This document shows, piece after piece, positions 10,901-39,690 of a DNA stretch of 41,307 nucleotides (its first letter is position 1; every line of letters starts with the position of its first letter). The notes beneath the pieces are model-generated. The model was not told where the DNA came from. It did not search any database and saw only the letters and a program-made list of their open reading frames with translations. The position numbers and the translations under genes are program-made. This DNA is from Ectocarpus siliculosus (lineage: Eukaryota > Sar > Phaeophyceae > Ectocarpales > Ectocarpaceae), in NCBI GenBank assembly GCA_000310025.1, contig FN649736.1, forward strand, positions 1,791,552-1,832,858. Reading direction: 5' to 3'.

Positions 10901-13900
10901 CAACGTAAAAAAAGGAGGGGAAAAATGAATGAAAAAAATCCTTGGTCTTGCCTTCCTCCTGTGTGACCCCGACGTCCAGAATGAACATTGGCGGACACAA
11001 ACAGCGTCTTGCTTCTTGAATGTAAAGTCACGACTCCGGTTAACAACGAACTAGTGACAGCAGGCCCGCAGTCTCCTGAATAACCGCTTTAGAACTTTCA
11101 CCACATGTTGCGGAACGTATACCTATAAATCCGCAAGAAGAAAAGGCAAGTTATCTGGACTGCTAGCAAGTCCCATGTCACGGTGACCTTCGCCACACTT
11201 CGCTTTCAGTCTAAGCCTTGGAAAATTCGAAAATCAATCGCTGCTTCACCGCTGTTGCACTGCCTGGCCGCCGCTTTCCAGGCCTGTTTACCTCTTGCAC
11301 TGGTGTTGGTGTTCGCCCTGTGTACCTGGAGGTGGTACAAGGGCAAGCTACCGGCAAGGCAGACACGAGCCGCCGACGAAACGGCCGTAGCGGCTAACCT
11401 CAGAGATGAGGAGGAAGGGGCACGCGACCCGCCGCCACCTGTTCCCATCAGAGGTCCCGAAGGAGGGGCTGTGGCAGGAGCGGCAAGAGCGGTGGTAGTA
11501 CGTCCCGCTGTCCTGAACCAAACCCTTGAAGAGATCGAGGAGGGATCGGCCGCGGAGGCTCCAGCAATCGTTGTCAACACCAGCGGTGATGGCCGGCGAG
11601 GTAGGCGGGCGCCCTCTCCCGCCGTCGGTTGTGGGGGTCTCCAGCGTGAGGCGCGAGTACGGTCACCCCCTGGTCGTGTTGGAGTTCCGGATGGGGCAGC
11701 GGCGATCGTTGCGGCGACACCACATCATGCTGGCCTCAACCGTGTCTTGGAGGATGGTGTAGAAGAGGTGGAGAGAGTGGCGGTTGTACGGATGCCCAAC
11801 ATCGCGGCCGTCGATGTGGTACCGCATCCTGCGGTACCCCTTACAGGTGTCCATCAGGGGGGAGAGGCGTGTCTACCTGCCGATGGCATCGCAGACAACA
11901 GCGGAGGAGAAGAAGGGGCGCATCAAGCCGCGGTGGGCTTGCTACCGATACTTCACCGTGGTGAGGATTTCGACCTATCACATCTCCCGGCAGGCCTTGG
12001 GGATGTCGAGCAGGATGGAGGTGCAGTGTTGCCGCCGGGTCTCTTCGGATATTTGGGTGAAGAGGGGGGAAAGGTGGAGGAAGAGAGGGTGGCGGAGGTC
12101 CGGATGCCCACCATCGCCGCCACCGATGTGGTACCGCGTCCCGAGGTACGCTCTGGAGGTGTCCATCAGGGGGGGGAGGCGTGTCTACCTACCGACGTCA
12201 TCGGAGACAACAGCGGAGGAGAAGAATGGGGGCGGCAAGCCGCGGTGGGCTTGCTGCCGACACTTGACCATGGTGAGGACTTCGACCTATCACACCTCCC
12301 GGCAGGCCTTGGGGATGTCGAGCAGGAGGGCGGGGTAGTGTTGCCGCCGGGTCTCTTCGGATGTTTGGGTGAAGAGGGGGGAAAGGTGGAGGAAGAGAAG
12401 GTGGCTGAGGCCCGGATGCCCCCCATCGCCGCCACCGATGTCGTACCGCGTCCCGAGGTACGCTCTGGAGGTGTCCATCAGGGGGGGGAGGCGTGTCTAC
12501 CTGCCGACGTCATCGGAGACAACAGCGGAGGAGAAGAAGGGGGGCGGCAAGCCGCGGTGGGCTTGCTGCCGACACTTGACCATGGTGAGGACTTCGACCT
12601 ATCACACCTCCCGGCAGGCCTTGGGGATGTCGAGCAGGAGGGCGGGGTAGTGTTGCCGCCGGGTCTCTTCGGATATTTGGGTGAAGAGGAGGAAAAGGTG
12701 GAGGAAGAGAGGGTGGCTGAGGTCCGGATGCCCACCATCGCCGCCACCGATGTCGTACCGCGTCCCGAGGTACGCTCTGGAGGCGTCCATCGGGGGGGGG
12801 AGGCGTGTCTACCTGCCGACGCCATCGGAGACAACCGAGGAGAAGGGGGGCGACAAGCCGCGGTGGGCTTGATGGCGACGCTTGCTGCCAACACCACCGA
12901 AGTCCGCCATGATGAGCAGGCAGAATCATCACATCGCCCAGCACGCTTTGGAGATCGTGCGCAAGGGGGTGGTGGGGCAGTGTTGCCAACGGGCCTCTTC
13001 GGATATCTTGGTGAAGAAGAGGAGAAGGTGGAGGAGAAAGAGGTAGTGGAGTCGGCACACACATCCAGCCTCACAACCGGACACGCGGGGCAAGAGCAGG
13101 GGACTCTGCTACCCGCCGGCCTTCTCGGCTTTCTGGGGGGCGTGGAGGAGGGAGAGGCGGCGCCTCGAGTTGGTCAATCATGCGAGACGAGCCGTCAGCA
13201 CCAGGAAGGGCGGCAGCATGAACCAATCATGCTGCGAGAGAGGATGCAGGCCGGCAACGATCGGGTGGGGCACCGCGAGAGTGCGGCCGGGTGGTGGATG
13301 GCCGAAGAGAAAGGTTCGTACGTGGCCGCCGCTGGTTTTAGTCGGATCGAGAGCAAGCCACGGGACGAACGCTTCTCAGGCGAAGTCTGTTCCGGAAGGA
13401 CGATCGGTGCTACCGCAGACCAGGGCATGCGGGCGGAGGCGACGGGCTTGGAGGGCCGTGCTATGCGGGCTGAGGGGCGTGTCGATATGTTCGATCACCG
13501 TCTTGAGGTGAAGGGGGAAGGGGTGAGGTCTCGCAACGGGAGGTGGTGATACATGCAGATTGTTTTATGTGTTACGCTGACATGTATCAACACCTTGTGC
13601 CCATGCAGCAAGAGTCTTCGCACTAGGAAAACACGGTCGATTTTAGGGTACATCTCTTCTTGCAGAGAATCGCTTCCGTTGTACAGAGAACCACGGCAAA
13701 AAGCAGCTACACCTTGTGTTTTCGGCTGGCAGCACTAGACTCCAGCTAATGCGCGGCGATATAGTCGTGTCCCTCCCGCATGAAACCCGCTTACGATAAC
13801 AGCAATGTCCACATTCAGGTACTGATCACTGTTGTGATGCCCCGCTGTTGTGTGTTCCCTGACACATTGAGAGCTAGCACTTTGTCGGCGCCGCACTTCG

Positions 13901-16900
13901 TTAATGTCCCCTCCCCCCTCGCATAGCCTTTCGGCAGTAAGAGTCGATTGGTGGACCATGAACGAACGTTTTGTCTTGTAACGAAATCCTCGTGCTGCTG
14001 TCGCCCGGTGGCAGGTTGGCGTTGGGGAGCACCTCTGGACGAAGGACGACAAGACATGTGAAGACGTGGCCGTCGGCATGCGACAGGAGCAGCTTGTGTT
14101 GCAGAACATGGACGGCATGGCATCGCATACTCTAGAGGCCAAGGCTGAAGGCAAGGGTCCGCCGTTGCGACCACCGATGAAGCGGGTCCAGATGCTGAAT
14201 TCCATCCTAGATAACTCGCCGTCGGGGACCGCCGCAGGCAAGGGACCGTCAGCAGCGAGGGCTCGGGACAGCAGCATCGCATCGATGGCGTTAGAGGCCA
14301 AGACGGAGGTGAAGGGAGAGGAGTTGAAGCCGGTTCAGGGTCTTCAGGCCTTCTCGCGAGGCGTTCGGGCGGAGGGTGAAGCTCTTCCGTGTATTCCGGA
14401 GGGTCGATCCGCGACGGTCGCGGCGGGAGGGCTACTGTCGACGGCCGGGCCGGGAGACGGGCCCTTGATCCGCGCGCCGTCCGTGGGACAGACTGACCGA
14501 GCTGACGAGCAGACTCGTCAGTCGGCTTTGACGAGTCTGTCGAGGCAAGTCGGGCAGGGATGGCGACAAAGGGGTAGCATCAGGCGCCTTTTCCTGGCCA
14601 ACCTCGCTGAAGTGTGTGCCTCCGGTCAGGTGCAGAGCTTCGCGGTCAATGCCCTGAAGACCGCGGACATGCCTATGGTGCTCGCGCAACCGCTTGGGTA
14701 CGGGTCGTTCGGACGAGTGGACGACGTGTCGTACGCCAGCCTCCCCGGCCAGTCGTTCGCCATGAAGACCGTGACACAGGTGAGCCGTGTACTGCTGCAC
14801 TGTCTAGACGTTGCCACTTTTGCTGCGTACGTGTGCCCGGGTGGAGAGAGCAGGTTTGGCAAGGAGAAGTGTTGCGCTTGAGACACAATCCGACCACCTC
14901 TCGGCCAACACACTCAAGCTGGGCCCCAACCAGGTGAAGGGCATGTAAAACACTCAAGTCCTAATGTGGTTTGTTGGATGCGGCCGCGCCTCACACCCCG
15001 TTTGCCTTGCGACCTCTCTCGTCCAGGCCGCCAGTATGTCGGCGAGGTTCTGTGCGTTGGTGGAGATGACGGTGTTCGCACGGTGAGATTGAGATTGCAC
15101 CATGGGAGAGGACCTGTGTTTGGACGTTTGGGATGTGGGATTTGCGCGTTTGCTCTCCACGCCAGGGTACTGGGAGGGATAGATCAAATCATTCACTGAC
15201 ATGGCAGCAGGAATCGCGGGGATGCCCTCGCGACTGCCGCGGGAAGCCGAAGGCGTCGAGTGCGAACTGTATACGGGCATGAGTCGCGCGTGCTTCTTTG
15301 TTTGTGTAAGGACGACGTCCCCTGCCGTTGCACACACACGAGTGCCACCAGTACAGTACGTCGGTCGTCCCAAATGTACTTTGGTGGCGAGGGTGGCGCT
15401 CCCATTCCATGCCGTGCGTCTAGCGTCCGCACCGACAACGCCTCTACAACCATGTGATGTTTGTCATCAGACCTGGCCCGACCGTAGAATGCTGTCGTAA
15501 GTCCATGTCCTCCTCAAGGCTACACCTTTCACGGGCTGTATATATTGTCCATTTCCATGCGACACTTCCCTACATGAAATGTTCCGTTTCGTGCTTGTTC
15601 CCCAGGCTGGCGCGAACCCCTCACCAAAATGTGCTCGGTGCGCTGTCAATGGACGACGACAGCGACCTGATGCCGATACTATTACCCAAAGCTCGGTGCG
15701 ACTTGGGGTCGTACATCAACTCCGACACCCATGGCCTTGGGGACAAACTAAGGCGAGATGCCCTGCTACACGCTGGCATGCTGCCCCACTGATGACGATT
15801 GGTCTGCCGTTCCTAAGCAATGTTCCACCACACCATGTGTGAAGGTTTGAAGCTGTAACCTACTTCGAACGCATTGATCGTCGGTGCGTCGTGACAAGGC
15901 GGAAGCTGCTGGGCTGATGGCGATAGCACCTTGACTGCGACGGCGTAGACAGTGCTTTTTGTCGAAACCGTCCGTGACATCCAGCTGGTGTGTTCAAGTC
16001 GATTCAGCCTCCCCGAGTTCTGCAGTGCTACCAACTATGTCAAGACTGGTCGCTGACTCATTCCTTCCTCCCTTACCGTTGTTTACCTTCGTTGTCTTTG
16101 CAGGCTGGTGGTTGACCTTGCGAGAGGGGCCCACCATATGCACTCCATGGGATTGGTTCACCGGGATATCAAGCCGGGAAACGTCTTGGTGTTTGAGTCT
16201 GAGGAGCATGGGCTGCATGCCAAGCTGGCGGATTTCGGGTTCGCCGCAGGTGAGGTTGTTTGTTCCCCCGCTGCTGTCCCAACCGTGAGCCGTTCTGGTC
16301 TGACGGCAAAATCCGCTTTGGGCTGTCATCAGTACAAATATCCCCCTGATGCAGAACGTCGTAAAAAGCCGCTTGTGCGTATTCCCCGGGTGCAGGCCGT
16401 GCTCGTATGGTATCCTTTCCGAAATCAGTGTTTGGCTTTGGTCGGAGATATGTGTGTCCTCCGAACGGCAATAGCGCTCCTGGCGACCGCTAATGAATGA
16501 AACCGGTTGGGCCTTTGGGCGTTGTTGAGTGAACCGTTCGTTCAAGACTACACGATTTGGACGGCAGCTCATGCAAGGTGCAATACATGGGCATGTTTTT
16601 CTACTCCCCTCAAGTTATCCTGCTCCCAACCCTCATGCCAACCGCCGAAAACGTGTCGTGTCGCGCTGTTCGGTTCACCATGTCAAACATGTCAAACACC
16701 AACAGAAATCGGGGAGAGGTGTCCGGGGGGAATGGGCACGTCGGGGGCCATGGCCTTCGAGACCATGTCGGCGGATCCAGTGTTGGGTGCACCGGCGCAA
16801 GACGTGGTTTCGGTGGCTGTCGTGCTCTTGATGGTTTGCTTGAAGAGGGAGCGGAGGTGCTCAAACCTCTTCACGCAGCAGGTAGGAGCAGTGCAGATGA

Positions 16901-18495
16901 AGTCAGTCCACGGTATTGTACGACCACACACCCGGAGGGAAAGTGTCTGCGCGCAACCGCACACTGCTGTCCCGGGGTCCTGTTTTCGTTCAGATGGCTC
17001 CCTTTGAAAATGCTCTCCTTGCGATCACATGAGATCCGCTGGTGGCCTGTTCGCTCGTTGTTGTCCGCAATAGTATTTGGTGTGTTTTGGACTGGATGGT
17101 TTTGTACCGAATGGGTGGGTTGGCGCCAACGAACTCTGTATGAACGTCGGTGGTATCTTCACTGCTGTGTGGAATACGCCTGCTCAACCCGTTGGATGTG
17201 GTCATTCCAGCCACCAGCGCCACAAACACAAGAGTTCATTCTCTTCGTAAAACGAGCCTCAACGTAGCTCTGCCGCTGGTTGTTCACAGCTGGGGTACTT
17301 TGCTGCCCGGCAAAGAGTGCATCGAACTTGCGTCGGCACAAGACAGGTGAGCACGAGCTACTGCATGTTTCTGCGCAATACCTTATTGATTTCCAAGCCC
17401 TTCAGTCCCATTGCGTTCCTACCTGAGAACGTGAAACATGAACGTTTATGTGAATTCGCCACGCACCTTACCGCAGGAGCTCAGAACGGCTGACGAGACC
17501 GCTAGGCTGGAAGTCCTCCTGGAACGTACTAGACTCGGCCAGGATGTTTCGCACGAGACCAAACTCTTGGAGGTACGCACCCCGTTGGCAAGAGGGTACT
17601 CTGCCGTCATGTCGTTGTGTGTGCCAGGGGTGTTGTTCCTGCTAGCCACGGTCCCGCATTGTTTGATGTGGTTTTTGCCCCTGGCTCGCCCGGTTGGTAG
17701 TTACCACGTTCGTATGGAATCCCAGTAAACGCCGAAGCGGTTGCTCCGTTCCCTCCGCGTGGAATAGCCTTGAGTATAGGGTAGAAGGAAGAAGGAGGTG
17801 CGTTTCGGCTCCAATTGTGTTCGTGGTTCATTGCCATGTGAATGTTGAGAGGACCCCCTTCCACTCCCGTCATTCATTCACTGCCTTGTTGTGCCTCGGT
17901 AGTTCGAGGTTTCCAGGAGGACGATGGCAGACGGGTCTTTCGTGGCGTGGCTTTCACCGGACAAGTTTGACCTGACGCTTGAATCGTCCGAGAAGGTGAA
18001 TGCAGTAGCGTGCCGTCCGCCCGTTGAATCGTGACCAACGCAGCTGATAAATCGTTCTCTCTCTCGCTATCCATTTCAAGGCGCCATGCACGACTCGCGT
18101 TTCGTCGTCAGCCCGATTTGCCATTTTGTAGAGGACAGTCTGTGACTGCTTGCGGCCAATTCGTCTGAAACATCTCGAAAGGGAACGTTACACCTCGCGA
18201 GATCCGCATCAAGTGGCGATGAATGAAATGAGCAAGAGAGTGACAAGATGGGCGTGTTTTGCATGAACGGCATGGCTTGTTGGGTTTGCTAAGATGTACC
18301 GCGATGTTGCTCTTCTTCCCGCTGGTCCTCGTCGCCTTGCCCAAAAATCAGCTTGTCGGCGTACTCCCGTCCCTCCTGGCGGTCGACCCTGAGAGCAGGG
18401 AAGACATGGACTTTCTCGTCCAGTTTACCTCCCACCTCGCCGAATTGAACAAGGGCTCAGAACAACCCGTAGAGGAGCCCGGGCGTGGGGGATAG
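7918..18495 (+). CDS. Single-pass membrane protein kinase with acidic repeat domain (copy A), about 12 exons
   Basis: Inferred exons are 7918-8037, 9400-9518, 10605-10695, 11210-13522, 14015-14779, 15027-15082, 15606-15752, 16104-16249, 16706-16881, 17290-17346, 17477-17572 and 18352-18495. Phases agree, giving about 1,409 residues. Order: basic N-terminus (MRIWRRKAA); a hydrophobic segment at about 128-150 (LPLALVLVFALCTW) followed by basic residues; a Glu/Gly-rich region with four 104-residue repeats; then a kinase domain. The kinase has the glycine loop GYGSFGRV (1109-1116), lysine in FAMKTV (1132), a helix C glutamate (1149), HRDIKPGN (1223-1230), DFG (1247-1249), MAFE in place of APE (1268-1271) and helix F aspartate (1285). 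The start is set at 7918 because exon 1 is exactly 120 bp in both A and B, beginning at this ATG. Exon 7 uses a GC donor. Exon 10 is the least certain: an alternative exon at 16994 would end at TGA 17030. It is probably an active Ser/Thr or TKL-like kinase. Confidence 0.72.
9787..10511. mobile_element. Foldback (long terminal inverted repeat) element
   Basis: Two arms of about 300 bp, roughly 9787-10078 and 10212-10511, are near-perfect reverse complements separated by about 130 bp. The outer ends are AAGGGCGCGGGGG and its complement. They are flanked by identical AAAGTT hexamers at 9781-9786 and 10512-10517, consistent with a 6-bp target duplication. It lies in intron 2 of kinase copy A and was not seen in the corresponding introns of copies B and C. 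No transposase is encoded; open frames in the arms are mirror-image shadows. Confidence 0.68.
11777..13030 (+). repeat. Coding minisatellite: four 312-bp in-frame repeats in kinase copy A
   Basis: Units start at 11777, 12089, 12401 and 12713, each exactly 312 bp (104 codons) apart. Each unit encodes an opening VRMP block, then VVPRPEV, VHQGGEACLPAD, NSGGEEG, GLLPTLDHGEDFDLSHLPAG, GDVEQ, LPPGLFGYLGEE and VEEER. Units 2 and 3 are nearly identical; unit 1 and the later part of unit 4 have diverged. A further partial unit (LLPAGLLGFLGG) follows near 13110. The region is acidic and Gly-rich, predicted on the opposite side of the membrane segment from the N-terminus. Long antisense frames here are repeat artefacts. 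Confidence 0.9.
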
Positions 18496-20399
18496 AGGAG
18501 AATTCCTCAAGTGTTTTCCTGGCTGTTGTGTTGTTTGCGGTACAGTAGTTCGACGTGTACCAGGAAGTTCATCTTTGTCTGGTGTCTATCGATTGTGATT
18601 GAGCCATTCCAAACGCTCAAGAGTTCATCCTCGTGTTTTTCGGTGGTGGGAGAGGAAAACACGCTATTGGATGGTGTTGGGTCTGGGTCGTAGGTTCGAA
18701 CATCTCGACCAGCACCCCAGCTGTTTGGTGCAATGATAATCGAATGATAGGCCGTGTTTGCCATTGCAGTGGCGGGCGCGGGGAAGGTTTTATCGGGGGT
18801 TCATGAAGGTTGGTTTGGTACCCGACATTCCTGAGTTCCTCGTGTACTTCCCAGGGGATCATGCCAATCTTGCGGTCCGCTGTGACAGCGTTGGCAATGA
18901 ATGCTCTGTCGCAGCTGTGATGCTTGGATTCGATAGAATAGGGTACCGCTCGTCATTTCTTGCTTGCGTGTAGTATTCTGGGAGTTGTGCGATGAAGTCC
19001 CTGTGGCTAAGGTTGGAGTAGCTCGTTCCCAGAGCCACAAATTCATATTCTAGACAACGTTTTCGAGGAGGGGAGAAAAGGTTTTCTGCAAGAACCGTGG
19101 GACACACGGGACTGACGTGTCGGGTGGAGGATGCTGGGAGTACTGTGTGGTATATTTGACACGTACATTACAGGTTAATATGTACATGCGTCGGGTGCTA
19201 TCGCCGTCATACCTATGACGTTAACGTGGCGTGGACTAAATAGGTGAAGTAGGTGATTTTTTCGTCTTACAAGGAACAGCGACAGAACACCTGTTTTCAG
19301 CATGTTCTCTTGGTAATGACGTGCGCCGCGCTGTGCTTGACGGCATGTTGTGTTGCCTCCTTAATGTTCAGAGCCGGGCGGCACCCTTCGCCGATATCCG
19401 GTGGAATATCATGGGGAAAGAAGGCAATGAATGTCAGTTTCATTGCCTCGACTTCAGTGACAAACCGAATGAACTCGACCTAGCCCTCGATTCTGTGGCC
19501 TATTGACGTACGAACTTAGTTCACAGCATGAGAGACGCTCTTGCTCGCAGAATATTACGTCCTTCTACTCCAGACCTATGGACGGAAATCAGGAACGTAT
19601 TTGGTCGCAATCGTTCCAAACTGGGTGTTATGTCTGTATCCCTTTACCTCCCCTTCGATGAGCAATGTCCGATCCCTTTTGGAAGGCAGTGCAATGGTTC
19701 CGTGCCGCCTGCTGCACTGCCAACAACGTGAATGTCCTCTCCTATTCATCGATTCACTTCGTGTAGGTCTGCAAAGCACCGTGTGCACAAGCACCGAAAA
19801 TATTTATCACATATGAGTGCCGGTGGACCGGCGGCTACAGAACAGAAAGCGACTCCGGCTGTGGGTGTCGAGAAAGCGAAATCGTTCGAGGCTGCTACTT
19901 ATTCCCGCACAATTAACCTATCGGTATTGCGTTCAGATCAAGCGTATGGTGCTGATTCCTGTCGTGCGGACCGTGATCGTGTCCCACAATTTTCTTTTTC
20001 TCTTCTCGCAAATTTAACAGACAGATGATTCCCAGGATATGCTGGTATAGTATGAATTAGCAAAGGGCACAGTGCTTGATGATTAACGATTCCCTGAGCA
20101 TCATACAGCGATATTTTCCCTTTGGGTAACAGACTCAACAACACAGTTTGGTGACCATCTTATATACTAAAGAATTTATCTGATAATATGTTTTGCTGTG
20201 AACGTGTAACGGAGTAGCCAATATATTGCTTGGTTGTGAAATGGATGTCGTGGTGCGGCCATACGGAGTATATTTTAGTGGATTGAGAGGTGGGCGCACG
20301 GGCCGCAACTTGTCTTAACTTGCCTGCGGGAGACAGGGGAACGGGCAGCCCCCAGTGCTAACCACCAAAGCATGGAAGCAGGGGGGATTAACCCTTCAT
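18496..20399. other. Intergenic region after kinase copy A
   Basis: No gene was recognised. Open frames around 19320-19500 and 19530-19820 are short and match no family I know. Near 20300-20385 the minus strand resembles the 5' half of a tRNA (a GGTGGTTAGCAC D-arm-like stretch), but no convincing T-arm follows, so it is at best a tRNA-derived relic. Confidence 0.4.
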
Positions 20400-24900: not shown

Positions 24901-25859
24901 TAATTGTCATAGTTCTTTTTTTTCCTCGTTTAATCCGTAGTAAGTGAACAAGCACCGTGAAATATTTATTTACTCCCCTTTGGATAGCAGTTAGCCTGGG
25001 ACCACGGCAGGCAGTCGTCCGCATCAGGTGACCGAAAGCGGATGTTTGCAGGTAACAAGGAGGCAATACAAACCAACATCAAACAGCAACAAGAGAGAGA
25101 GAGGCGCCGAAAACCTCGTGGTGGAGAGATCAGCGGTTTCAACCGCTGAAGTCGAAGGAGGAGGTGCGGCGCAAGTTAAGGTGAAACAGTGAAATCAAGT
25201 CTCTCTCTCTAACAACTCCCGCCCGATGTATCCCTAGTCACCAAGCGCTCAATGAATCATGTTTCTTCTCCAAGGTACCGACCTCAGCAGGAGTAGCGGC
25301 AGTTGCTGCAAGTAAACCAAAATGGGGTCTCGGTGGTTTACGGCTCATGTCTGGCGTGATGGTGATGCCAACCTCATCTTGGCACACAGAAGGGTGAGTG
25401 AGGCCGATCATGATCCTTTGCTTAGGTCAAGCACGAGGTCCCAGCGGCTGATGCAATGAAAGAACAGCGTGTGTGCAGCATACTGCAGCCGGTGTAGCGC
25501 ATGCATGGTGCGGGTGCTGCCATACATTTACCCCGCTGCTCTGAAGAGAAGATGTGACGAGCTTGAACTTTTTTCACGCGTCGCCGCAATGGCGTTATTG
25601 AAAATACCCCATGTGTGCGCAATGTGTGGAGCACGTCGGACTCCAGCAATTGTATTCATAGCCAAAACACGCAGCTTGTTGCCGCAGAACCCCTTTCACC
25701 CACCATCGCGACATTGCTTGATCGCCTTCATAGGTGGCGTCGCGAGGACTGGGCCACCCCGGCCGACAGCAAGACCACCCCGGCTCTTTTCCTGAGAGAA
25801 AACGCCGAGGTAAAAACGAACTTCGGAAGCATCCGACGTAGACCAACAATACTGCAGTG

Positions 25860-26931: not shown

Positions 26932-29204
26932 TGTTGAAACCATTCCTCCCTGCCATTGAGAATATACCCGAGGCGTTCATCTTCCCTGAACGGTTCAAAC
27001 GCTACACGGGGCGTTCTCGAAGGGTGTTTGGGTGGCGTTACGTTCTGCCGATTGTCAACGGGTTAATAATCTCGCACACAAACCGCGTTGTCGTGCTGTG
27101 CTTACATCTGTACGAGCTGTAGCCAGGTACTCTTCACACTCGGTACTCCTAAGCAAGGTCATATGTTCATTATGCTTAGAGCTGAACCCCAAGGACCATC
27201 GAACACTGCTGGTATACTGTCCGCCCGCCGCGCCGGTTTCGCAGGCTTCTTCCGTTGTCGTGCTGGTGTCCGTGCTCTGTATGTGTGCCTTGCGATGGTG
27301 CAGGGGGAGGCTGGTAGCAAGGAAGGCACGTGTAACCACGGGAGCGGCACGAGGGGCTACTCTCGGAGGTATCGTGGAGGAGGATGCGCGCGTGCAGTCG
27401 CCTCCTGTTTCCAGTCGAAACCCAGGCGCGGGTGTCGTGGCGCCGGCGACTGGGCGCAGGGCAGTGCCATCAGGTCCCACGATCATATTGGAGATCATTA
27501 TGAGTAACCCGGGGGAGCAGCGGATATGGCGGCAGATGTGGCGGCGTCATCATATATCGCTGCCCTCAACGAACATTTGGAGGAGGAAGTAAAGGGGGGA
27601 TCGGCCGCGGAGGCCCCGATACCTGATGTGGTCACTTCTGCCGCGGTGCCCCTTGGAAGTGTAGATCTCCGTCAGAGGGGGGCGCGCTGCTACCTGCCGG
27701 CCCCCTCAATGGATACAGCCGTGGAGGGGAAGAAGGGGGACGGCAAGCCACGTTGGCCTTTGTTCTGATTCTTGCTCAACACCACCGATGTCCGCCATGA
27801 TGAAAAGGTATTTTAGTCACATTAAATAGCAAACCTTGGTGATGTCGAGCAGGGGTGCGTGGCAGTGTTGCTGACGGGTCTGTTTTGGATATCTCGGTGA
27901 TATGGAGGAGGTGGAGGAGGAGGAGGAGGAGGAGGAGGAAGAGTGGGGGGTGGGCTCGGCGCACATATTCACCGTCACAGCTAGGCACGGAGTAAAAGTG
28001 GGGGTCGCTGCGGCCAACTGGTCTCCTCGGCGTTCTGGAGAGGGCGGGAGAGGGTGGAAGCGGTGCTTCGACCTTCGGCAGAGCGTGGATGAGTATTATG
28101 ATACGACCACCAGGCGTGAGAGAGTGGAGGACTGCGATGAGTGGGTGAGGAATCGTGAGAGTACGGCGGAGTGGTGGATCGCCGAGGCAGAAGATTTTAG
28201 ACGTGGAGACGGCGGCTTCGTCGGCCGCTGTGGTCCAGAAAAAGGCACGGCACCAACGTGCCTTGGAAAAACTCTGTTCCGATTGGAAGGTCGGTGCTAC
28301 CTTCGATCAGACGATGTGGGCGGAGACGTCGGGCTTGGAGTGTCGTGCTATGGAGGCCGAGGAGCGTGTTAGAATGCTCGGTCACCGTCTTGAGGGGGAC
28401 GACGGCGGGTAAACTCTTGCAATCTTCGGTAGTGATTCTCTTATGTACGAAAGGGCACGTGGGTCACTATCATGTACCGTATGAAACCCCCCCGTCTATT
28501 TCTTCTGCTGAGAGCCGTTTTCGTGGACAGGAAACGACGGTATGATTCAGCAACCTCTTGCGTTTTGGTTTGGCAGCACTATAGCATCCTGCTAGGCGCA
28601 GCGATGGTCGCGTCTCTCCTTCATGAAATCAGATCACCATAAAGCAGCGCAAACGATGTTAGTATGTACATGAGTTGCACCATTAGGGTGTTGCCTTGTG
28701 TGCCTTGGGAGCTGTAGGACCGTGGCGATGCCGCACCTTACGTCCTGCTCCGTCCCGCCTAGCAAACGGGTTTCAGTTGTTGATCGTAAATGTTGTGTTG
28801 TACATTGATGTATAGTCTATGATGCACACCGGCGTCATTGGGTGGTGGTAGGCTGAAGTTCAGGAGCATCTCTGGTCCGAGAAATAGCCCAAACGTGAGG
28901 ACGTACGCACGGACATCGAACCCGACCTGTTGGCGTTGCAGAACATCGTCAGCGTGGAATCGATGGCGGTAAAGCCCGAAGCTAAGGGGAAGGTCGTGTC
29001 TCTGTGTTCCTTCATGAAGCGGTTCTAGACCCTGTAGTCCATTCTACATAGGTGCACCATCGGAGACCGTCGTTGCCAATGATCCGGGACAGTAGAGAAG
29101 GCATGGCATCCGCTGGCGGGGTGGGTATGCAGAGTACCACGCCTCTGCACACATCGCCATGGCTGCTCTCATCTACCCTCACGAACACGCGTACGAACGC
29201 AGTG

Positions 29205-29570
29205 AGTGGGTAGTTGTTTCCCGGCAGTGCAGCAACACACGACTCACCTGCGGTCTTCGTGTCAAGCGACCACCCACGACGGCTGGCGCACGAGACATCA
29301 TCGTCGACTCTTCCAGACGCACTGTATCGAAGCGGTTGTGCCCCAACACCAAGGACATGGCGCTGGCGTTGAGGGTATATTGTTGGCGAAATCTAATGTA
29401 CAGTATAGTTCCTGGTCGGAGGCACCGTCACTCACTTCGGCGACATTTTCCAGAAAGAAGCATGTGATGTGACCCCTCTGCCAATGCACCTCCACACTCC
29501 ACGACAGGCTCGCCAAAGCCTGACGTCTTAGCTCGTCAGGTTGGTCCATCTGCGAGACAATTTGTACATG
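29205..29570 (-). pseudogene. Inverted duplicate of kinase exon 5 (3' half) plus start of intron 5
   Basis: On the minus strand this encodes a relic of the region before and into the kinase N-lobe: DQPDELRRQALASLS, then FFLENVAEV, and a degenerate glycine-loop area. It matches copy A residues DRADEQTRQSALTSLS and FLANLAEV. The exon-intron junction is preserved: the minus strand reads GACCGCAG then GTGAGTCGTGTG at 29246-29248, against ACACAG then GTGAGCCGTGTA in copy A. It sits inside the broken exon 5 of copy B, so copy B contains this segment in both orientations. Confidence 0.7.
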
Positions 29571-30210
29571 AAACAAGGATTCATATCCAGTCCCCACATG
29601 ATGATGTGGACGGCAACCTTACAGCCTCCGTCGAAGATTGCTCCTCCTGCACGCACGATGGAAGTTTTCACCCTTCGTCCAAAACGCGTCGCGGCAAGGG
29701 CTTAAGAGCGTGAGCCCGTTTCATCGCTGTTACGTTGCCATAGGGAGCGACGATGAAGCGGGTGCAGGGTTCAGGGTCTTTTCGCACGGAGTCGGGGTCT
29801 TGACGCAGGGAGCTTGAACGGAGGGTCAAGCTTTGCCGGGCATCCAGGAGGGTCAACCCTTGACGGAGGCCGGACGTTACCGTCGATATATGGGACAGGA
29901 CATTGCTTTAGCTGTGCGTGCTGTGGTCGTGGAGATTGAATTGACCAATTTGACAAGCCGAGACGTCAGGCGTTGGGGGTCTGCGGTCTGGCTACAAGGA
30001 CGCAGAAGTGTACTTGAGGAGGGAGTATCGCCGAAGCGAGTTGGGTTTGTCCGAAAATGCCCTGAACACCAGCGATATGCCCTGTCGAGGCAGCAACCGC
30101 TTGGGCACGGAATATTAGGAATAGTAGATGATGACGCGAATGTTGTTGTCTGTTGCCATGAAGAAGATCGTCATAGAGATGATGCTGCTTCATGCGCGCG
30201 TTCGCGAGGA

Positions 30211-31593
30211 TAGATGAGAGCACATTTCGGACGTGGCAATGTAGTACCCGAATTGTCGACGCCACTCACCCACCTATCTAGTACGTTCACATGCCATCAG
30301 CTTGTTGGATGCAACCTACTAATTCCTCCCCCCCGGATGCGTCACTGAGAATATGGCCGATCGGGGTCTCCAGCGGCTAACGTTACATCGGCTGCTGACT
30401 GACTAGCATGAATGCTTTCGACGTCATTTCGGTCCAAGAATGATGAAGCCACCTGTGAAATTGGCGGTACAGACTTGGAGTATTGGGACATCTTGCTCAT
30501 GGCTATCCATTGTCGGCTTGTGCGTGAAGTCTATGGCATGAGGAAAGCAACACAGCGTGAGCGTGGCTGAGTTTTGTGTGATCACCTTGACTCATCTTTT
30601 CGATAAATCCTATCGGCAAATATATCAACACTTTTCGTGGGTCTACGGACATGGTTTGGATATGTTAGCCGTACGTACAAGTGTGACGCAGATGGTGTAG
30701 AACCTTTTAGGTAGGGGTACGGTGATGATGCATCGGGGCCCCCTTTTGTTGTGTGCAGCAGCCCTGCTGCCACTCTTCCTTTCTGAGCACGACAGCGCCC
30801 TGGGTACGGGCGTTGCCTCACCGTCTGAAGTTAATACACTACACAAACAATACCCGATAAGTACGCGGAGTACGGCCGACAAACAAACACACCGTGTGCC
30901 AGTGCATATCAACAGTACCCGCAATGCCTTGCAACCCAGTGAGAGAAACAGAGGTATAGGGCACCAAGAGATTCATTCGCCGTCACACAAGGAGCAGGCC
31001 GTGACTCAATCAATCACGCACCTGTTTGTCCTGCCACAGGGAACACGGCACGCCCCAACAAACGACTTAACAATCGTCTAAACCCAGTCGTGTGTAGCCC
31101 TACCCCACGTTATCTATTGCACACTTGGACACCAACTTTCTTGCCCTTCTCGTGTCTATCGTCCTATGAGACCCTGTCGCAACGATCTCTTAACGGTACA
31201 AAGATGTGAATTTCCTCAAAGAAAGGCCAGCGACGCCGCAGGACCGACCTATGGTACGCTACTGGATGTCTCACTGAAGTTGTCTGAAACGCGTCCTGCC
31301 GCGCGAGGAGAAACGAAGAACGATCCCATCGGGGAAAGTGTGCGAAACCCCCTAAGCAAAACAAAAAAAAATAAAACGAAACGCTCACATGGTGACCCGT
31401 GAATCACACACACTCATCTTTCCCTCGACCAGGTGGGTAAAGAAAAGCAGCATTGTATAGACTAGTCTACAGTAGCTCATCAGCTACATAGCGCGTGGTT
31501 AGATATGGTGGTAGGCTGAACGAGACAACATCTTGGTGTCACCAGCTCATTCACGCGACTAGAGCTGGCGTCGATAACCCGGGACAACCCCAT
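30211..31593. other. Spacer between kinase copies B and C
   Basis: No gene was recognised with confidence. A plus-strand frame from ATG 30725 to 31081 (about 118 residues) starts with a signal-peptide-like stretch (LLLCAAALLPLFL), but it has no recognised domain or conserved copy, so it may be chance. The part from about 31170 to 31300 resembles 7230-7350, upstream of kinase copy A. From about 31450 the sequence resembles the region just before exon 1 of copy B. Confidence 0.35.
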
Positions 31594-33130
31594 CTGGGCT
31601 TGTTCCGGCGGAAGGCTGCCACCGGTTATGGCAGCAACCGACGAAAGACGGCGTCGTCGGTGGTTTTCCGCTGGCTGGAAGAGAAAACGAGAGAAATATC
31701 GGAGGAGGAACCGAGAGGCAAGTACGCGGCTGGGCTTCACGCCCGTCTATCTCTGCGACTTCGGTTCCATGCGTCGTGATTTAGAATACATAGCCACCCG
31801 GGTTGACGACGTCGCCTCTACATTCAATTATTAAACCTCATTGTGCGGTGTGGGTGCCGAGCGGGACCTGCGAGAGGGCATACCCTCCGTCCTCCGTAGA
31901 CATGGTCTTACAACGAACTTCCAGCAGCAACAAGGGTAGACTTCTAACATGATCGCCGCAGAGAGAGGGAGGGAGGGGGGGAGGGATGGAAGGAGAGAGA
32001 GAGAGACGCCCGACCCCCGACCCCCGGTTCCTGGTCGAGAGAGCGGCCGTTTCAGCGGCCATGAGTCGAAAGGGAACATGCGGCGTAATTGCAACTGTTG
32101 TACAGTCTCTCCCTCTAACAACTCCCGACTCATTTGTCAGTCGTCAACCCGCCAACGCGCATCTTCATGTTTCTTAGCCTCAGCAGTAGTAGCGGCATCT
32201 ACTACCGCAGAAGACCTGAAGTGGAGGTTCGATGGGTGCGGCCGATGTCTGGCGCCATGGTGCTGCCAGACCTATCGTGGGACACACAGAGTGAGTGTGG
32301 CTGATCATTCTACTTTTTCTCAAGCAATCAAACACGAGGTTCCACCAGCCGATTACACCAGAGGAACGGATTGCAGTAGTCGTGAAGCCATCGTAGTATT
32401 CGAAAAACGTGCTGCCTGGCGATTGCGCCCCGCCGCTCAAGGGTAAATTAGAAGAACGAGGGCATCTTGAACAATAGCTTGTCCACACCCCACATGGCGA
32501 TGACCGTTTCTTGAATCCACATATGAAGCCAGACAGGCAAATGTGCAGCACAATGGACTCGCCCATCTGTTTTCGCAACGGTCTTCGAAAGTTGTTCACT
32601 CAGAACGGCAACAATGTATCGATCACCTTCTTAATGTATAAATAGGTGGCGTCGTCAGCTGCCAGAGGACCGAGACACCCTCGCCCGCACCAGCAGAAAA
32701 GGACCCCGTCTCTCTCCTTGAGACAAAACGCGGAGGTGACAAAGAAGCAGAGGATTGGTTGAGCGTGTCCGAGGCATTTTCACAGCCTAGCGTCGTAAAA
32801 GTGGCACGGCGTAGGGGCTTTGTGAAAGCTAGTCAAAACCGGGTCAGTAGCCCGGTTTCTGACAGGAGAAGCCCACGGATGCAACACCCGCCACATCGCC
32901 CACCGGCAAAGGACGAAACGGCCGGAAATCACCGAGCCGCGGGCTTATCAAGGGACGGGAAGAATGCCACCGTTTACACTATTAATAGTGCGGCGGGATA
33001 TATTTTCAAGCTCAAAGGCCAAGCGCCCTTTTCTCTACAGCAGTGATGCCCGGACACGCACTGGCGTACTTCTCTCTGCTATTGGCACTAGGGCAGTACG
33101 CCAGAGCGCAGCAGGGCATGCGCAGCATGC

Positions 33131-33279
33131 CTAAGCTTGTCCCTGAGGCTAGGTGGTGTCGTTGTCCATGTAGAATGCCGCGTCGCACCGGGCTGTCGGC
33201 AATAAAAATTGGCGTCAAATCGCTGCAGTCGTCCATGTTCAGCGAACCGAGCACGTCGCTGCTAGGGTTTGGCGCAAGC
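33131..33279 (-). pseudogene. Inverted copy of kinase exon 7
   Basis: The minus strand reads an intact acceptor (CCCCAG), then the exon with DVLGSLNMDDCSDLTPIF, matching NVLGALSMDDDSDLMPIL in copy A. It ends before a GC donor (GCATGC at 33125-33130, minus strand). Sequence homologous to intron 6 follows it in plus orientation (about 33330-33530) and leads into the plus-strand exon 7 copy at 33536. Confidence 0.7.
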
Positions 33280-33535
33280 CTGGGGAACAAGAACAAAACT
33301 AGAATGGTCCCGTGTGTGCGTTGTTGTCCAGGGTGGCGCTCCCGTGCGCTTAGTCTAGCGTCCTCGCCGAAAATGTCTCTACATGTATGAGTTTTCGCGA
33401 TCAAACAAGACCCGACTATGGAATACTGTCGTATGTCCATGTCCTCACCAAGGCCACACCTTTCACGGGCGGTGCATACGTTTCCATGCGACGTGACTAT
33501 GACGACCTTTGTTCGGTTTCGTGACTGTTCCCCGG

Positions 33536-33880
33536 GCTGGCGATAATCCAAAACAACAACGTGCTCGGTGCGCCGGCCGTGGATGACAACATCGATTTCA
33601 TGCCAATCTTGCCCATAGCTGGTTGCGACATGGCTTCGTACTTGGACAACGACAACTCTAGCCTGGGGAACCAACTGAGGCAAGCAGTGATACCCTGCCA
33701 CGCGCTGGTGTAGCAGGGCATGCGCTGCTTGCCTGAGGGTATTTCCATGGCCATGGATGTCGCTGTTCATGTGTGATGCCAAGTCGCATCAAGCGTTCGG
33801 CAACAGGATAAGCATCAAATCGCTGTTGTCATCCGTGGACAACGCACCGAGCACGTTGTTGTTTTGGGACCAGCGCCAGC
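33536..33880. repeat. 345-bp palindrome made of two exon 7 copies
   Basis: A plus-strand exon 7 copy (33536-33679) and a minus-strand copy (33733-33880) lie tail to tail. The 53 bp between them is also palindromic: GCAAGCAG at one side pairs with CTGCTTGC at the other, and ACCCTGC with GCAGGG. The unpaired loop is therefore only about a dozen bases. Both arms use GC (GCAAGC) at the exon 7 donor position and have lost the acceptor AG (CCCCGG). Confidence 0.75.
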
Positions 33881-34089
33881 CCGGGGAACAAGCACGAAAC
33901 GGAATGATAGTCGTCTCGTGCGTGCGTTGATGTCCAGGGCGGCGCAATCGCGCTATGTCGCGCGTCTATCATGGCGCCCTCACCGGGCACGACGCTACAA
34001 TAGTCTACGTGCGGTTGCCCGTAGACGCTTTCCCTACGGCTGTGTCTTCTTTCGATTCCGTGCACTGACTCTAGCTGCACTACTCTCAC

Positions 34090-34434
34090 CTGCTGGGTGA
34101 AGAGGTTCGACCACCTCCACTCCCTCTTCAGGCAGGCCATCAGCAGCACGACAGCCACCGACACCACGTCCTGTCCCGGTGCACCCAACTCCGGATCCGC
34201 CGACATGGTTTCGGAGGCCATCGCCCCCGCCGTGCCCATTCCCCCCCAACATCACTCTTACATCGAGAGTGGTGCCCGGGGAGAATGTGTACGGGGAGAG
34301 TCATGGCCTTCGAAACCATGTCTACTGATCCGGTGTTGGGTGCGACGAGGCATGATGTGTTGTCGATGGTTGTCGTGCTACTGACGACCTGCCGTAAGAG
34401 GCAGCGGAGGTGCTCGTGCCTCTACACTCGGCAG
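34090..34434. repeat. Head-to-head inverted pair of kinase exon 9
   Basis: The minus copy at 34090-34247 encodes GAMASETMSADPELGAPGQD, with intron 9 sequence continuing leftward. The plus copy at about 34256-34434 encodes MAFETMSTDPVLGATRHDVL. Both correspond to the MAFE and helix F region of copy A (MAFETMSADPVLGAPAQDVV). Donor GT sites are kept on both (34088-34089 minus, 34435-34436 plus), but the acceptors at the centre are lost. Confidence 0.75.
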
Positions 34435-35246
34435 GTGTGAAGGAGTGCAGATAGGCTCGGTGCGCAGTATCGTGAGACCACAGACGTACGGAAAGCGTCT
34501 GGGGGCAACCGCACACTGCTGTCCAACGGTCGTGCATCGGGCATGATGGGGCGTGTAGTTGATGGTTTTTGCCACCTGTGATTTTGTTCAGACGGCTCCC
34601 TCTGAGAAGCTAGCCTCGTCGTCAAATAAGGTCCGCTGGTGGCCTGCCTTGCTAATTGCTGTCAACAAGAATGCTTGGCGTGTTTTCGATTCGATGGTTG
34701 TGTACGGAATGCATGGGTGGGTGCCAACAAACAATGTCTGAATTTTCGCACCATCAACAGCGGGTGAAATACGCCTGCTCAGTCCGTTCCGTGTGGCTCT
34801 TCCGGCCAACAGCACCACAGACGAAACACCGTGCGTGAATCGAATGCAGTTGAGACAAGCTACCCCCAGCAGTACCTCTGCCGTTCGTTGTTCGCCGCTG
34901 GGGTGTTTTGCTGACGTTAATGTATCAAACATGCGCCCACAAACGACCGTTGAACAAGCGTGCAGTTCCTGGTTGGTTTCCGTGTCCGTCAGTGTCGATC
35001 CATTAGCGCCTGAACGTGAACGCTTAGATTGTCGGCCGAAGACGAAAAGGTACCGTACCGCAGGCGCTCAGAACCGTTGGCGAGAAAGTCAAACCTGGAG
35101 GTCCTGCTCGGAAGCACCAGACTCTGCCACGACGTTTCGCACGAGACCAAACTGTTGGAGGTATGCACCCCTTTCGCAAAATGACACAGCTGTCATACCA
35201 GGTTTCGGTGTCTGTGCCCCGAATGCTATTGTAGGAAAGTCATGGC

Positions 35247-35758
35247 TGGTTGGTTTCGCTCAAAAGCTTGTGGTGATGTTGCTGTTCCCGTTGCCTTGTC
35301 CGAATCACCAGCTGGACGGGGTACTCTCCCCTCCCGCCCGGCGGCAGACCCTGAAAGCCGCGAAGACGTGGACTTTCTCATCCAGTTTGCCTCCCACCAA
35401 CAGATAAGAAAACTTTGAGGACCTCGTTATGGAGCTCCCCTATCCCCCACATCCGTGCTCCTCTCTGACAACTGATTGTTCCACATTCCATTCAAGTCGT
35501 GAGATGACGAGGAATGTGGGACAACCAGTTGTTCGAGAGGAGCACGGATGTAAAGGGTAGGCGATCCCTGTAAGGAGGTCCTCAAACGCTTATCTGTTGG
35601 TAGGTTGCAAACTGGACCAGAAAGGTGTGTCTTCGCGGTTTTCACGGTCTGCCGCCAGGAGGGAGGGGAGTACCCCGACCGGCTGGTGGTTCGAACAATG
35701 CAACGAGGAACAGGGGAACAGCAATATCGCCATAAGCTTTGGCGAAACCAACGAGCCG
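35247..35758. repeat. Palindrome of about 510 bp around kinase exon 12
   Basis: The left arm contains the end of intron 11, the acceptor CACCAG and exon 12; the right arm holds the same in reverse. The centre (about 35497) has CAACTGATTGTTCCACATTC opposite its near-complement, with a loop of about 19 bp. The arms differ by small substitutions and indels, so the palindrome is not a very recent artefact. The inverted exon 12 keeps a reading (GVLPSLLAADRENREDT) closer to copy A than the plus one does. Confidence 0.78.
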
Positions 35759-35914
35759 TGGCGCTGCTTCGAGCAAATGCGGAGAGAGCTACCTTGCTGG
35801 CCATCTCCATGTATCTTCTCGCTCATTGCATCTATCGCCACTTGATGCGGCGAGGCTTACCCTTCCCTTTCTTGAGATGTTTTCAGAAGTACTGGTTACA
35901 GTAATCTCCCTCAA

Positions 35915-36165
35915 GGACAACGACACCGCTAGCCTCGGGGACAAGCTGAAGCAAACAGTGGTCCCCTGCGACACACTGGCGCACTTCCCTCGGTGTAGCA
36001 GGGCGTGTGATGCATACCTGAGCTTGTCCCGGAGGCTCGTGGTTTCGTTGTTCATGTAGGACGACAGGTCGCATGAGCTTTGGGCAACAGGATGGGCAAT
36101 CATGTCGCTATGGTCGTCCGTGCACAACCCACCGAGCACGTTTGTGGTGTGCGTCTCGCGACAGC
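35915..36165. repeat. Tail-to-tail exon 7 remnants
   Basis: The 3' end of a plus-strand exon 7 (about 35915-35951, GC donor) faces a complete minus-strand exon 7 (36019-36165). The minus copy has an intact acceptor (CCCCAG) and a canonical GT donor (GTATGC). Intron 6-like sequence follows in plus orientation from about 36215. Confidence 0.7.
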
Positions 36166-36402
36166 CTGGGGAACAAGCATGAAACGGAAAGATGGTCGTC
36201 CCGCGCGTGCGTTGATGTCCAGGGTGGCGCTCCCGTGCAATGCCATGCGTCTATGTAGCGCCCTCCCCGAAAACACCTCTACAAGTATGATGTTTCTCGA
36301 TCAAACAAGGCCCGACCATTGAGGCTGCACCTTTTACGGGCTGTACATTTCCATGTGGGATGACTCTGACGACTTTTCTTCGGTTTCGTGCTTGTTCCCC
36401 GA

Positions 36403-36700
36403 GCTGGAGCTAATCCAATAATACAACGTGCTCGGTGCGCCGGCCGTGGGTAACAACGTCGACTTCATGCCGATGTTGCCGATAGCTGGTTGCGACATTG
36501 CTTGGTGCATGGACAACGACAACTTTAGCCTGGGGAACAAACTGAAGCAAGCAGTGATGCCCTGCCACACACTGGTGCGGCAGGGCATGCGCTGCTTACC
36601 TGAGGGTGTCCCCGTGACCATGGAAGTCGCTGGTCATGTACGATCCCAAGTCGCATCGAGCTTTCGACAACAGGATGGCCATCAAATCGCTGTTGCCGGA
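36403..36700. repeat. Second exon 7 palindrome
   Basis: A plus copy (36403-36546, GC donor GCAAGC, acceptor mutated) and a partial minus copy (36600 to about 36697, GT donor GTAAGC) lie tail to tail. The 53-bp centre contains ATGCCCTGCC and GGCAGGGCAT around a 12-base loop. The arrangement repeats that at 33536-33880, including the spacer length. Confidence 0.75.
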
Positions 36701-38499: not shown

Positions 38500-39690
38500 C
38501 TGAGGTATGCCCTGCCGCGACCAGCCCGGGAATGGAACCTTAACGGGTGCCGAATCGGATGCTGACCCCCGGCCTGGGAGTGAGTGTCGAGGTAGGTTCC
38601 CGCGAGGGAATGGGCTGCGTCCATCGTTTCCGATTGCTACAGTGACAGGACCAACCCTTGAGAGTGCGCGGTAGCTTGGCAAGGGTCGAACTTGCTGGGT
38701 GCGGCACGGTGTACTACGCGTGTTGATTCGTGTGGAAATATTTGTGTAGCCGTATGTTCATGTAGCTGTCTATCTCTCTTCGTGATGTCGCATGCCCTGT
38801 GATTCTTGTTTTTTATTTTCCTTTTTTATTTCCCCGTTGCCTTCGAACGCCGGCAGTCTCTTGGCGTGCACCGACGGATTCCGTCGCCACTGCGTCGTCC
38901 GTGTCGCAAACCTCGGGAAACGTCTCGTTCCCCATGCGTCCTTCGCTCCACTGCTGTTCCCCACAGGTGGGGGTGCCGGGTACTCCACCCCGGGGTGAAA
39001 CCGCTTCGGAGAATAGCAGTGCTAATGGAGATACCACCGGACCAGGCGCTACGCGGGACCGAACCGAGGAATTCATCCCCGGCCTCCCCGCCCTCGTTGA
39101 CGCCGCCGAGGGTAAAGCAGCGGTCGGGGCTGGAGCTTGGCCTGGTGAAGATGAAATGACGTTCTGCCGCGGCCGACCCGGGAATGGGACCTTGACGGGT
39201 GCCGAATCGGATGCGGAAGCTTCGCCTGAGAGTGCAGAGGTAGCTTCCCGTGAGGGCTCCGGCTGCGTCCATGGTTTCCGATTGCTTCAGCGACGGGACC
39301 AACCCTTGAGTGAGCGATACAATAGCATGGCGAGGTCGGACGTGCTGAGTGGGACAGGGCCTGCGCGTGTTGATTCGCTAGGAACTAATAGACTATTTAT
39401 GTAGCTGTGCGTTCGAAAAAAAACATGTTGCTGTAGCTCTGCACACTCTCTTCGTGGTGCCGCATATATATGCCCTGTTATCTTCTTTTTTCCGAATATT
39501 CCTTCCACGTTGCCTTCGAACGCGAGAAGTAACTTGACGTGCACGGACGGATTCCGTCGCCATTGCTTCGTCCGCGTTGCGATCGTCCGTGAACGTCTCG
39601 TTCCCAATGCGCTGTTCCCCACAGGTGGGGGTGCCGGGGTGATGGTCTACGGCTTCGGAGATAGGCTGTGTGACGGGAGACGCTCAAAGG
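38500..39690. repeat. Tandem duplication of about 650 bp
   Basis: Two direct copies, about 38500-39030 and 39160-39690, share several landmarks. These are GGGTGCCGAATCGGATGC, GACCAACCCTTGAG (38648 and 39297), TTGCCTTCGAACGC (about 38838 and 39510), GACGGATTCCGTCGCCA, and CCCCACAGGTGGGGGTGCCG (about 38959 and 39617). The offset is 649-672 bp. Short GCTTCGGAGATAG repeats follow near 39652 and 39719. A 201-codon frame (38799-39404) spans the copy junction. Confidence 0.75.

What the first reader, a model, noticed from the sequence alone, without database searches (positions are those of the whole stretch)
33131..36700. Inverted kinase exons form palindromes of about 250-510 bp: a candidate natural hairpin-RNA source
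Exons 7, 9 and 12 each occur as facing pairs within about 3.6 kb, and two exon 7 pairs share the same 53-bp self-complementary centre. A transcript through any of them would give a long duplex matching copy A exons. Known: inverted gene duplicates can produce small RNAs that silence the parent gene. Inference: copy C may regulate the kinase family, or may just reflect repeated palindromic rearrangement.
Basis: partly seen in the sequence, partly recalled or inferred. Interest (0 to 1): 0.72.

Follow-up and report, generated by a model that had tools for sequence, protein, structure and literature searches.

The report
Palindromic exons in a dead kinase copy
A broken extra copy of a protein-kinase gene carries several of its exons as old mirror-image pairs that would fold into long RNA hairpins if transcribed, but nothing in the sequence shows that they are used for gene silencing.

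Summary
The palindromes are real. Exons 7 (33501-33915), 9 (33987-34535) and 12 (35241-35760) of a kinase paralog form inverted pairs far beyond chance; three further exon-7 palindromes are cut short. Arms are only 69-82% complementary, so this is old sequence, not an assembly fold-back. Plus arms of different exon-7 palindromes group together, as do the minus arms of units U1 and U3: a palindromic unit formed first and was copied later. A second partial paralog (B) has an exon-5 palindrome. Copy C has no match to the exons carrying the lysine, alpha-C, HRD and DFG, so alone it cannot encode an active kinase; copy A looks intact where I delimited it. As RNA the three main palindromes fold extremely well (z -21 to -29), and 222 of 3645 21-mers of C match the copy A region with at most 2 mismatches, 2 exactly. 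But G:U and A:C mismatches are equal (55 v 51) and perfect pairing is not clustered beyond correction. Best reading: a degenerate paralog shaped by repeated inverted duplication; at most a raw hairpin source. Ectocarpus has sRNA-making palindromic regions (PMC4513859), but this organism is unidentified.

The parts
11129..18500 (+). Copy A: kinase gene, open in the exons I delimited (long first exon with 3.6 copies of a 312-bp repeat, G-loop exon ending 14779, alpha-C exon 15027-15085, exon 7 15606-15752, exon 8 with HRD/DFG 16104-16254, exon 9 16717-16881, exon 11 about 17477-17572, exon 12 about 18304-18492); outer limits approximate
   Evidence: Joined translated exons hit Pfam Pkinase 6.3e-19 and solved kinases; exon 8 alone 9e-12; tandem repeat; exon positions
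27204..30131 (+). Copy B: 5' part of a paralog (A 11247-14872), with matches to the first exon spread over three frames
29513..29976 (.). P5: exon-5 palindrome in copy B (minus copy of A 14325-14872 at 29149-29723, plus copies of A 14347-14724 at 29796-30131)
31176..32757 (+). Upstream exon-like blocks Q, R1, R2 of copy C, collinear with those before A (7244-10717) and B (22646-25820)
   Evidence: alignments
33039..33299 (.). P7a/U0: exon-7 palindrome with most of the plus arm lost; minus arm 33086-33299
33307..33904 (.). U1: intron-6 piece plus exon 7 (+) tail-to-tail with exon 7 (-)
33501..33915 (.). P7b: exon-7 palindrome of U1, 76% paired, centre near 33708
33910..34000 (+). Start of a further unit (A 15364-15449), cut off by P9
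33987..34535 (.). P9: exon-9 palindrome, head to head; minus arm 34009-34257, plus arm from 34267; 77% paired
34267..35196 (+). Exon 9, intron and exon 10/11 region, collinear with A 16714-17610
   Evidence: exon 11 peptide at 35089-35160
35241..35760 (.). P12: exon-12 palindrome, plus copy 35229-35398, minus copy 35599-35895, inverted 3' tail in its left middle; 82% paired
35914..36189 (.). P7c/U2: exon-7 palindrome with most of the plus arm lost
36194..36698 (.). U3/P7d: intron-6 piece, exon 7 (+) and cut exon 7 (-)

Best explanation
Copies B and C are dead, partial paralogs of the kinase gene A. In them several exons (5, 7, 9, 12) were copied in inverted orientation next to themselves, most likely by fold-back priming or short-range template switching during repair or replication (inferred). 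One such product, the exon-7 palindrome with its intron-6 lead, was then copied as a unit (supported by the tree). Since then most arms have drifted without a trace of constraint. The palindromes are therefore fossils of rearrangement with strong but incidental hairpin potential. If the locus is transcribed in a cell with Dicer they may shed mixed small RNAs (inferred), but a regulatory role over A is not indicated.
For: Palindromes far above chance. Plus arms U1p and U3p are 87% identical and minus arms U1m and U3m 83%, while the two arms of one palindrome are 73% (U1), 67% (U3), 61% (U2) and 64% (U0) identical, so the palindrome predates its copying and arms were not homogenised. G:U and A:C mismatches 55 v 51, p 0.77. 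Longest perfect runs fit random placement in three of four palindromes; P7b has 26 pairs counted across a gap (25 without), p 0.023 before correction for four tests. The best-conserved 21-nt window of exon 7 is at the 95% null limit (0.876 v 0.878). No match in C to the exons with the lysine, alpha-C, HRD or DFG at E 0.05. A stop or frameshift inside the exon in four of six larger exon-7 copies (U0m, U1m, U2m, U3p); U1p is open but has lost the acceptor AG, and U3m is cut short but open in what is left. The two plus arms tested (U1p, U3p) show no third-position excess against A.
Against: The formation mechanism is inferred; no palindrome-free ancestor of C is available. Unit U0 does not fit neatly: its minus arm groups weakly with A (0.54) and is closer to plus arms U1p and U2p (70, 73%) than to the other minus arms (65-68%). 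In exon 9 the minus arm has evolved more slowly than the plus arm (9 v 27 private changes, p 0.004; intron 15 v 13), and both exon-9 arms read open for nearly their whole length. In exon 7 the minus arm U1m differs from A with third-position bias (22 of 40, p 0.004). So some minus arms were under coding constraint, were converted from A, or come from another paralog, which would make those palindromes juxtapositions rather than fold-backs. Lack of selection marks cannot exclude a young or weak small-RNA source.
Confidence: 0.66

Rival explanations
1. Copy C is a hairpin-RNA (proto-microRNA) locus: transcribed through the palindromes, diced into 21-nt RNAs that act on kinase A or its relatives.
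For: Very stable folds. 477 of 3645 21-mers of C lie within 3 mismatches of the copy A region, against none in two controls. Exon-like blocks Q, R1, R2 end about 280 bp before C and also precede A and B, so transcription could enter. Precedents: 16 Arabidopsis MIRNA loci from inverted duplications of coding genes, MIR163 with its donor's promoter (PMC1790633, abstract and passages); a Drosophila hpRNA with arms from a coding exon (PMC10317233, passages); sRNA-producing extensive palindromes in Ectocarpus (PMC4513859, section 17 read).
Against: No mark of selection on pairing; 2 of 3645 exact matches to A; transcription unknown; organism unknown.
Confidence: 0.22
2. The minus arms were captured from a different, longer-functional paralog, so some palindromes are juxtapositions of two diverged copies and not fold-backs. 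(This overlaps with the best explanation and differs only in how the pairs arose.)
For: Exon-9 minus arm is closer to A than to its own partner in the exon (23 v 39 differences of 166) but not in the intron (36 v 34 of 109); exon-7 arms of U1 and A are nearly equidistant (27, 21, 26 private changes).
Against: Short spacers between arms (6 to 31 nt for P7b, P7d, P9, P12), and in P12 the arms look like sisters (25 A-private v 19 and 9, no significance test made).
Confidence: 0.25
3. A mobile element that captured kinase exons, the palindromes being its inverted ends.
For: A TTAA-flanked fold-back element lies at 9785-10513 in the same window.
Against: Copy C keeps an intron stretch and upstream blocks collinear with A. 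Terminal repeats or target duplications around 33039-36698 were not sought systematically.
Confidence: 0.04
4. Assembly or library artefact: chimeric inverted reads.
For: Artefactual palindromes exist in long-read and amplified libraries (recalled).
Against: Arms 18-31% diverged; plus arms of different units group together.
Confidence: 0.02

Closest known systems
Inverted-duplication-born MIRNA and siRNA loci of plants (PMC1790633)
   Same: Local inverted copies of protein-coding sequence with arms similar to a gene family, and a strong fold
   Different: Several separate palindromes in one paralog, arms of about 120-260 bp; no small-RNA evidence; old, drifted arms
Drosophila hpRNA loci (PMC10317233)
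   Same: Inverted arms with homology to an exon of a coding gene (about 200 bp in hp-ODox1)
   Different: hpRNAs there are shown to be transcribed, Dicer-dependent and to repress targets; none of this is tested here
Sixty-five weak miRNA candidates in complex palindromic regions of Ectocarpus (PMC4513859)
   Same: Extensive palindromes over hundreds of bp
   Different: Those make sRNAs. For their accepted miRNA loci the authors found no derivation from coding genes by BLAST. The species here is unknown
Fold-back inverted duplications (PMC3907307)
   Same: Inverted copy beside the original with a spacer between
   Different: Those are human duplications with sequenced spacers of 766-70,466 bp; here spacers of about 6-31 nt and single-exon scale

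Membership tests
hpRNA / inverted-duplication MIRNA locus | Long inverted repeat that folds as RNA far better than shuffles | tested here: met
   z -21.5, -28.8, -26.0; none of 100 shuffles as good in each of the three palindromes folded
hpRNA / inverted-duplication MIRNA locus | Arms derive from a protein-coding gene | tested here: met
hpRNA / inverted-duplication MIRNA locus | Sequence close enough to guide on the parent gene | tested here: inconclusive
   2 exact and 222 of 3645 21-mers at up to 2 mismatches
hpRNA / inverted-duplication MIRNA locus | Pairing kept by selection (excess of G:U over A:C, clustered pairing) | tested here: not met
   55 v 51; three of four palindromes at random expectation; P7b p 0.023 uncorrected
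hpRNA / inverted-duplication MIRNA locus | Transcribed and diced into 20-24-nt RNAs | not testable with these tools
   no expression or small-RNA data held
Duplicated (unprocessed) pseudogene | Loss of essential exons or reading frame, introns kept | tested here: met
Gene-converted palindrome (Y-chromosome type, recalled) | Arms of one palindrome more alike than arms of different copies | tested here: not met
   clear for units U1 and U3

The most novel reading that the evidence does not exclude
Inverted duplication of exons in a dying paralog turns it into a multi-hairpin small-RNA source for its living relative: a caught-in-the-act origin for extensive palindromic sRNA regions such as those reported in Ectocarpus, whose own origin is not explained in the sections of that paper that I read. 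Here a palindromic exon unit is itself amplified like a gene.
Probability: 0.13. Interest if true: 0.68.

Novelty: new variant of a known kind. Interest (0 to 1): 0.38.

Why it matters
Inverted gene duplication is one accepted way to make new small-RNA genes (PMC1790633). Here two partial gene copies hold palindromes of four different exons, apparently of different ages, beside a likely donor gene, so the steps can be partly ordered from sequence and tested with small-RNA libraries once the species is known. If no small RNAs are made, the locus is still a clear record of repeated local inversion-duplication in a degenerate gene.

Tried and rejected
Looked for the organism and found nothing conclusive. 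No genome is held. The joined kinase had no relative in viral contigs and one remote bacterial hit (24% identity) in genome contigs. The retroelement ORF had no viral-contig relative, and phages gave one remote kinase. Ten further ORFs had no Pfam match at E 0.1; Rfam at gathering threshold and ARAGORN found none. A brown alga is my guess from G+C, long introns and kinase layout; it is not tested.

Considered a minus-strand gene made of the minus arms: rejected, since exon order on that strand is 7, 7, 12, 9, 7, 7. Considered a promoter at TATAAATA (32637): one of 2 matches in the window, 0.11 expected; in the alignment it lies in a C-only insert before block R2, so not relied on. Considered an embedded conserved 21-mer in exon 7: not above the null. 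Considered one duplication of the whole exon-7 array: not clean, as U0m and U2m are only 65% identical while U1 and U3 are 83-87%, so the order of later copies is unresolved.

Literature: searches; I saw no paper describing this locus in those listings (each capped, open-licence papers only). Beyond the papers cited above, PMC11378527 (passages), PMC12477816 (passages) and PMC12867755 (section 9 and passages) were seen in part. Supplementary files were not open to me, so I could not compare the locus with published sRNA lists.

Full report
OBSERVATION. The region 33039-36698 (copy C) holds inverted exon pairs as described. Aligning each stretch with its own reverse complement gave scores of 386 (33501-33915), 512 (33987-34535) and 536 (35241-35760), and 58, 94 and 150 for three shorter ones (P7a, P7c, P7d). 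The best of 50 shuffles was at most 44 in every case. A scan of centres across the whole window found seven clusters above 60 (maximum 30 in one shuffled window). Six are exon palindromes or a head-to-head neighbour pair in copies B and C; the seventh is a fold-back element at 9785-10513. P7a and P7c were too short to pass that scan. Pairing is 76, 77 and 82% in the three main palindromes and 69-75% in the other three.

ANATOMY. Copy A (about 11129-18500) is a plausible working kinase gene. Its exons joined at inferred splice sites give a Pfam kinase domain (E 6.3e-19) and match many solved kinases; I did not delimit every exon. Copy B (27204-30131) matches the 5' part of A and copy C the 3' part. 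Both partial copies have blocks Q, R1 and R2 upstream, collinear with those before A; their alignments look like exons with splice signals (my reading). Read along the window, copy C runs: exon 7 plus (tail only)/minus, intron-6 piece, exon 7 plus/minus, start of a third unit, exon 9 minus/plus, exon 10/11, exon 12 plus, inverted 3' tail, a stretch not placed with confidence, exon 12 minus, exon 7 plus (tail only)/minus, intron-6 piece, exon 7 plus/minus. Copy B has exon 5 minus/plus. Exon pairs 7 and 12 are tail to tail, 5 and 9 head to head. Copy C has no match at E 0.05 to the G-loop/lysine, alpha-C or HRD/DFG exons, so by itself it cannot make an active kinase. Four of six larger exon-7 copies have a stop or frameshift inside the exon (U0m, U1m, U2m, U3p); U1p is open but lacks the acceptor AG; U3m is cut but open.

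HISTORY. In a tree of nine sequences (exon 7 of A and eight pieces of C), the four plus arms group together (support 0.92) and U1m groups with U3m (0.92); U1m, U2m and U3m stand apart from the rest (0.84), while U0m falls weakly with A (0.54). U1 and U3 share 87% in plus arms and 83% in minus arms, but the arms within a palindrome share 73% (U1), 67% (U3), 61% (U2, 90 columns) and 64% (U0, 42 columns). So the palindrome came before its copying, at least for U1 and U3, and arms were not homogenised. It also argues against assembly fold-backs. Private changes of A, minus and plus arms are 27, 21, 26 for exon 7 (U1) and 25, 19, 9 for exon 12: exon-7 arms are about as far from each other as from A, while the exon-12 pair looks younger. 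Exon 9 is odd: within the exon the minus arm has 9 private changes and the plus arm 27 (p 0.004), but in the intron 15 and 13. Its minus arm was under coding constraint longer, or was converted from A, or came from another paralog. The exon-7 minus arm U1m shows third-position bias against A (22 of 40, p 0.004), U3m weakly (13 of 25, p 0.042), U2m not significantly (16 of 35, p 0.087); U0m, U1p and U3p do not. These p values are not corrected for the 21 pairs listed.

HAIRPIN TEST. As single-stranded RNA P7b, P9 and P12 reach -265, -369 and -378 kcal/mol with z -21.5, -26.0 and -28.8. In these three, 387 of 441, 495 of 541 and 495 of 581 21-nt windows have at least 15 paired bases; in P7d 137 of 261. 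Of 3645 21-mers in C (palindromes and the rest), 2 match the copy A region exactly, 60 within one mismatch, 222 within two and 477 within three; inside the six palindromes 169 of 2228 are within two. A shuffled C and window 19001-22665 had none within three. So the raw material for silencing exists. Against a maintained role: a hairpin kept by selection on one strand should favour G:U over A:C mismatches, or the reverse if the other strand is read, but they are 55 and 51 over the six palindromes (p 0.77). Perfect runs are no longer than random placement gives, except in P7b (26 pairs, p 0.023 before correction for four tests). No 21-nt window of exon 7 is conserved beyond the 95% null.

COMPARISON. 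Plant MIRNA genes born from inverted duplication of coding genes are the nearest functional analogy: 16 Arabidopsis loci, some thought to join two related duplicates, and MIR163 with its donor promoter (PMC1790633, abstract and passages seen). A Drosophila hpRNA has about 200 bp of homology to a coding exon (PMC10317233, passages). In Ectocarpus, a large number of candidate miRNA loci lay in 'complex, extensive palindromic sequences' making multiple sRNAs, and 65 are shown as weak candidates (PMC4513859, section 17 read). The same paper found no evidence that its miRNAs derive from coding genes (section 21 read). [quoted passage not shown] If the window is from such an alga, this locus would suggest one source for those palindromes; that is inference on an unidentified species.

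VERDICT. Observation confirmed and extended. The regulatory reading is possible but unsupported. The best reading is a degenerate paralog with repeated inverted exon duplication and secondary copying of a palindromic unit.

Noticed in passing
9785-10513: A much younger inverted repeat (arms 91-96% identical, perfect runs up to 67 bp) with TTAA at both ends and GGGCGCGGGG/CCCCGCGCCC termini, like a fold-back MITE; folds at -576.5 kcal/mol (z -59, 20 shuffles). It is a stronger double-stranded RNA candidate than copy C and lies between blocks R1 and R2 before copy A.
   Followed up: partly
7244-10717, 22646-25820, 31176-32757: Three collinear copies of blocks Q, R1 and R2 precede kinase copies A, B and C, so a larger segment was triplicated; whether they are 5' exons of the kinase gene or a neighbouring gene is open.
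   Followed up: partly
15752; exon-7 copies in 33039-36698: The exon-7 donor appears to be GC in copy A (AAG|GCGAGA) and GC or GT in the copies (e.g. CAG|GCAAGC, CAG|GTAAGC); a likely GC-AG intron, from my reading of the alignment.
   Followed up: no
11771-12884: Tandem repeat of a 312-bp unit, 3.6 copies, 92% matches, in the long first open frame of copy A.
   Followed up: no
20401-22381: Several diverged direct repeats (aligned pieces of about 80-950 bp, 62-74% identical), with no Pfam match in the one ORF tested.
   Followed up: no
23534-24632: Retroelement remnant with RT/RNase H-like matches in two frames.
   Followed up: no
38512-39638: Direct repeat, 72% over about 500 bp.
   Followed up: no
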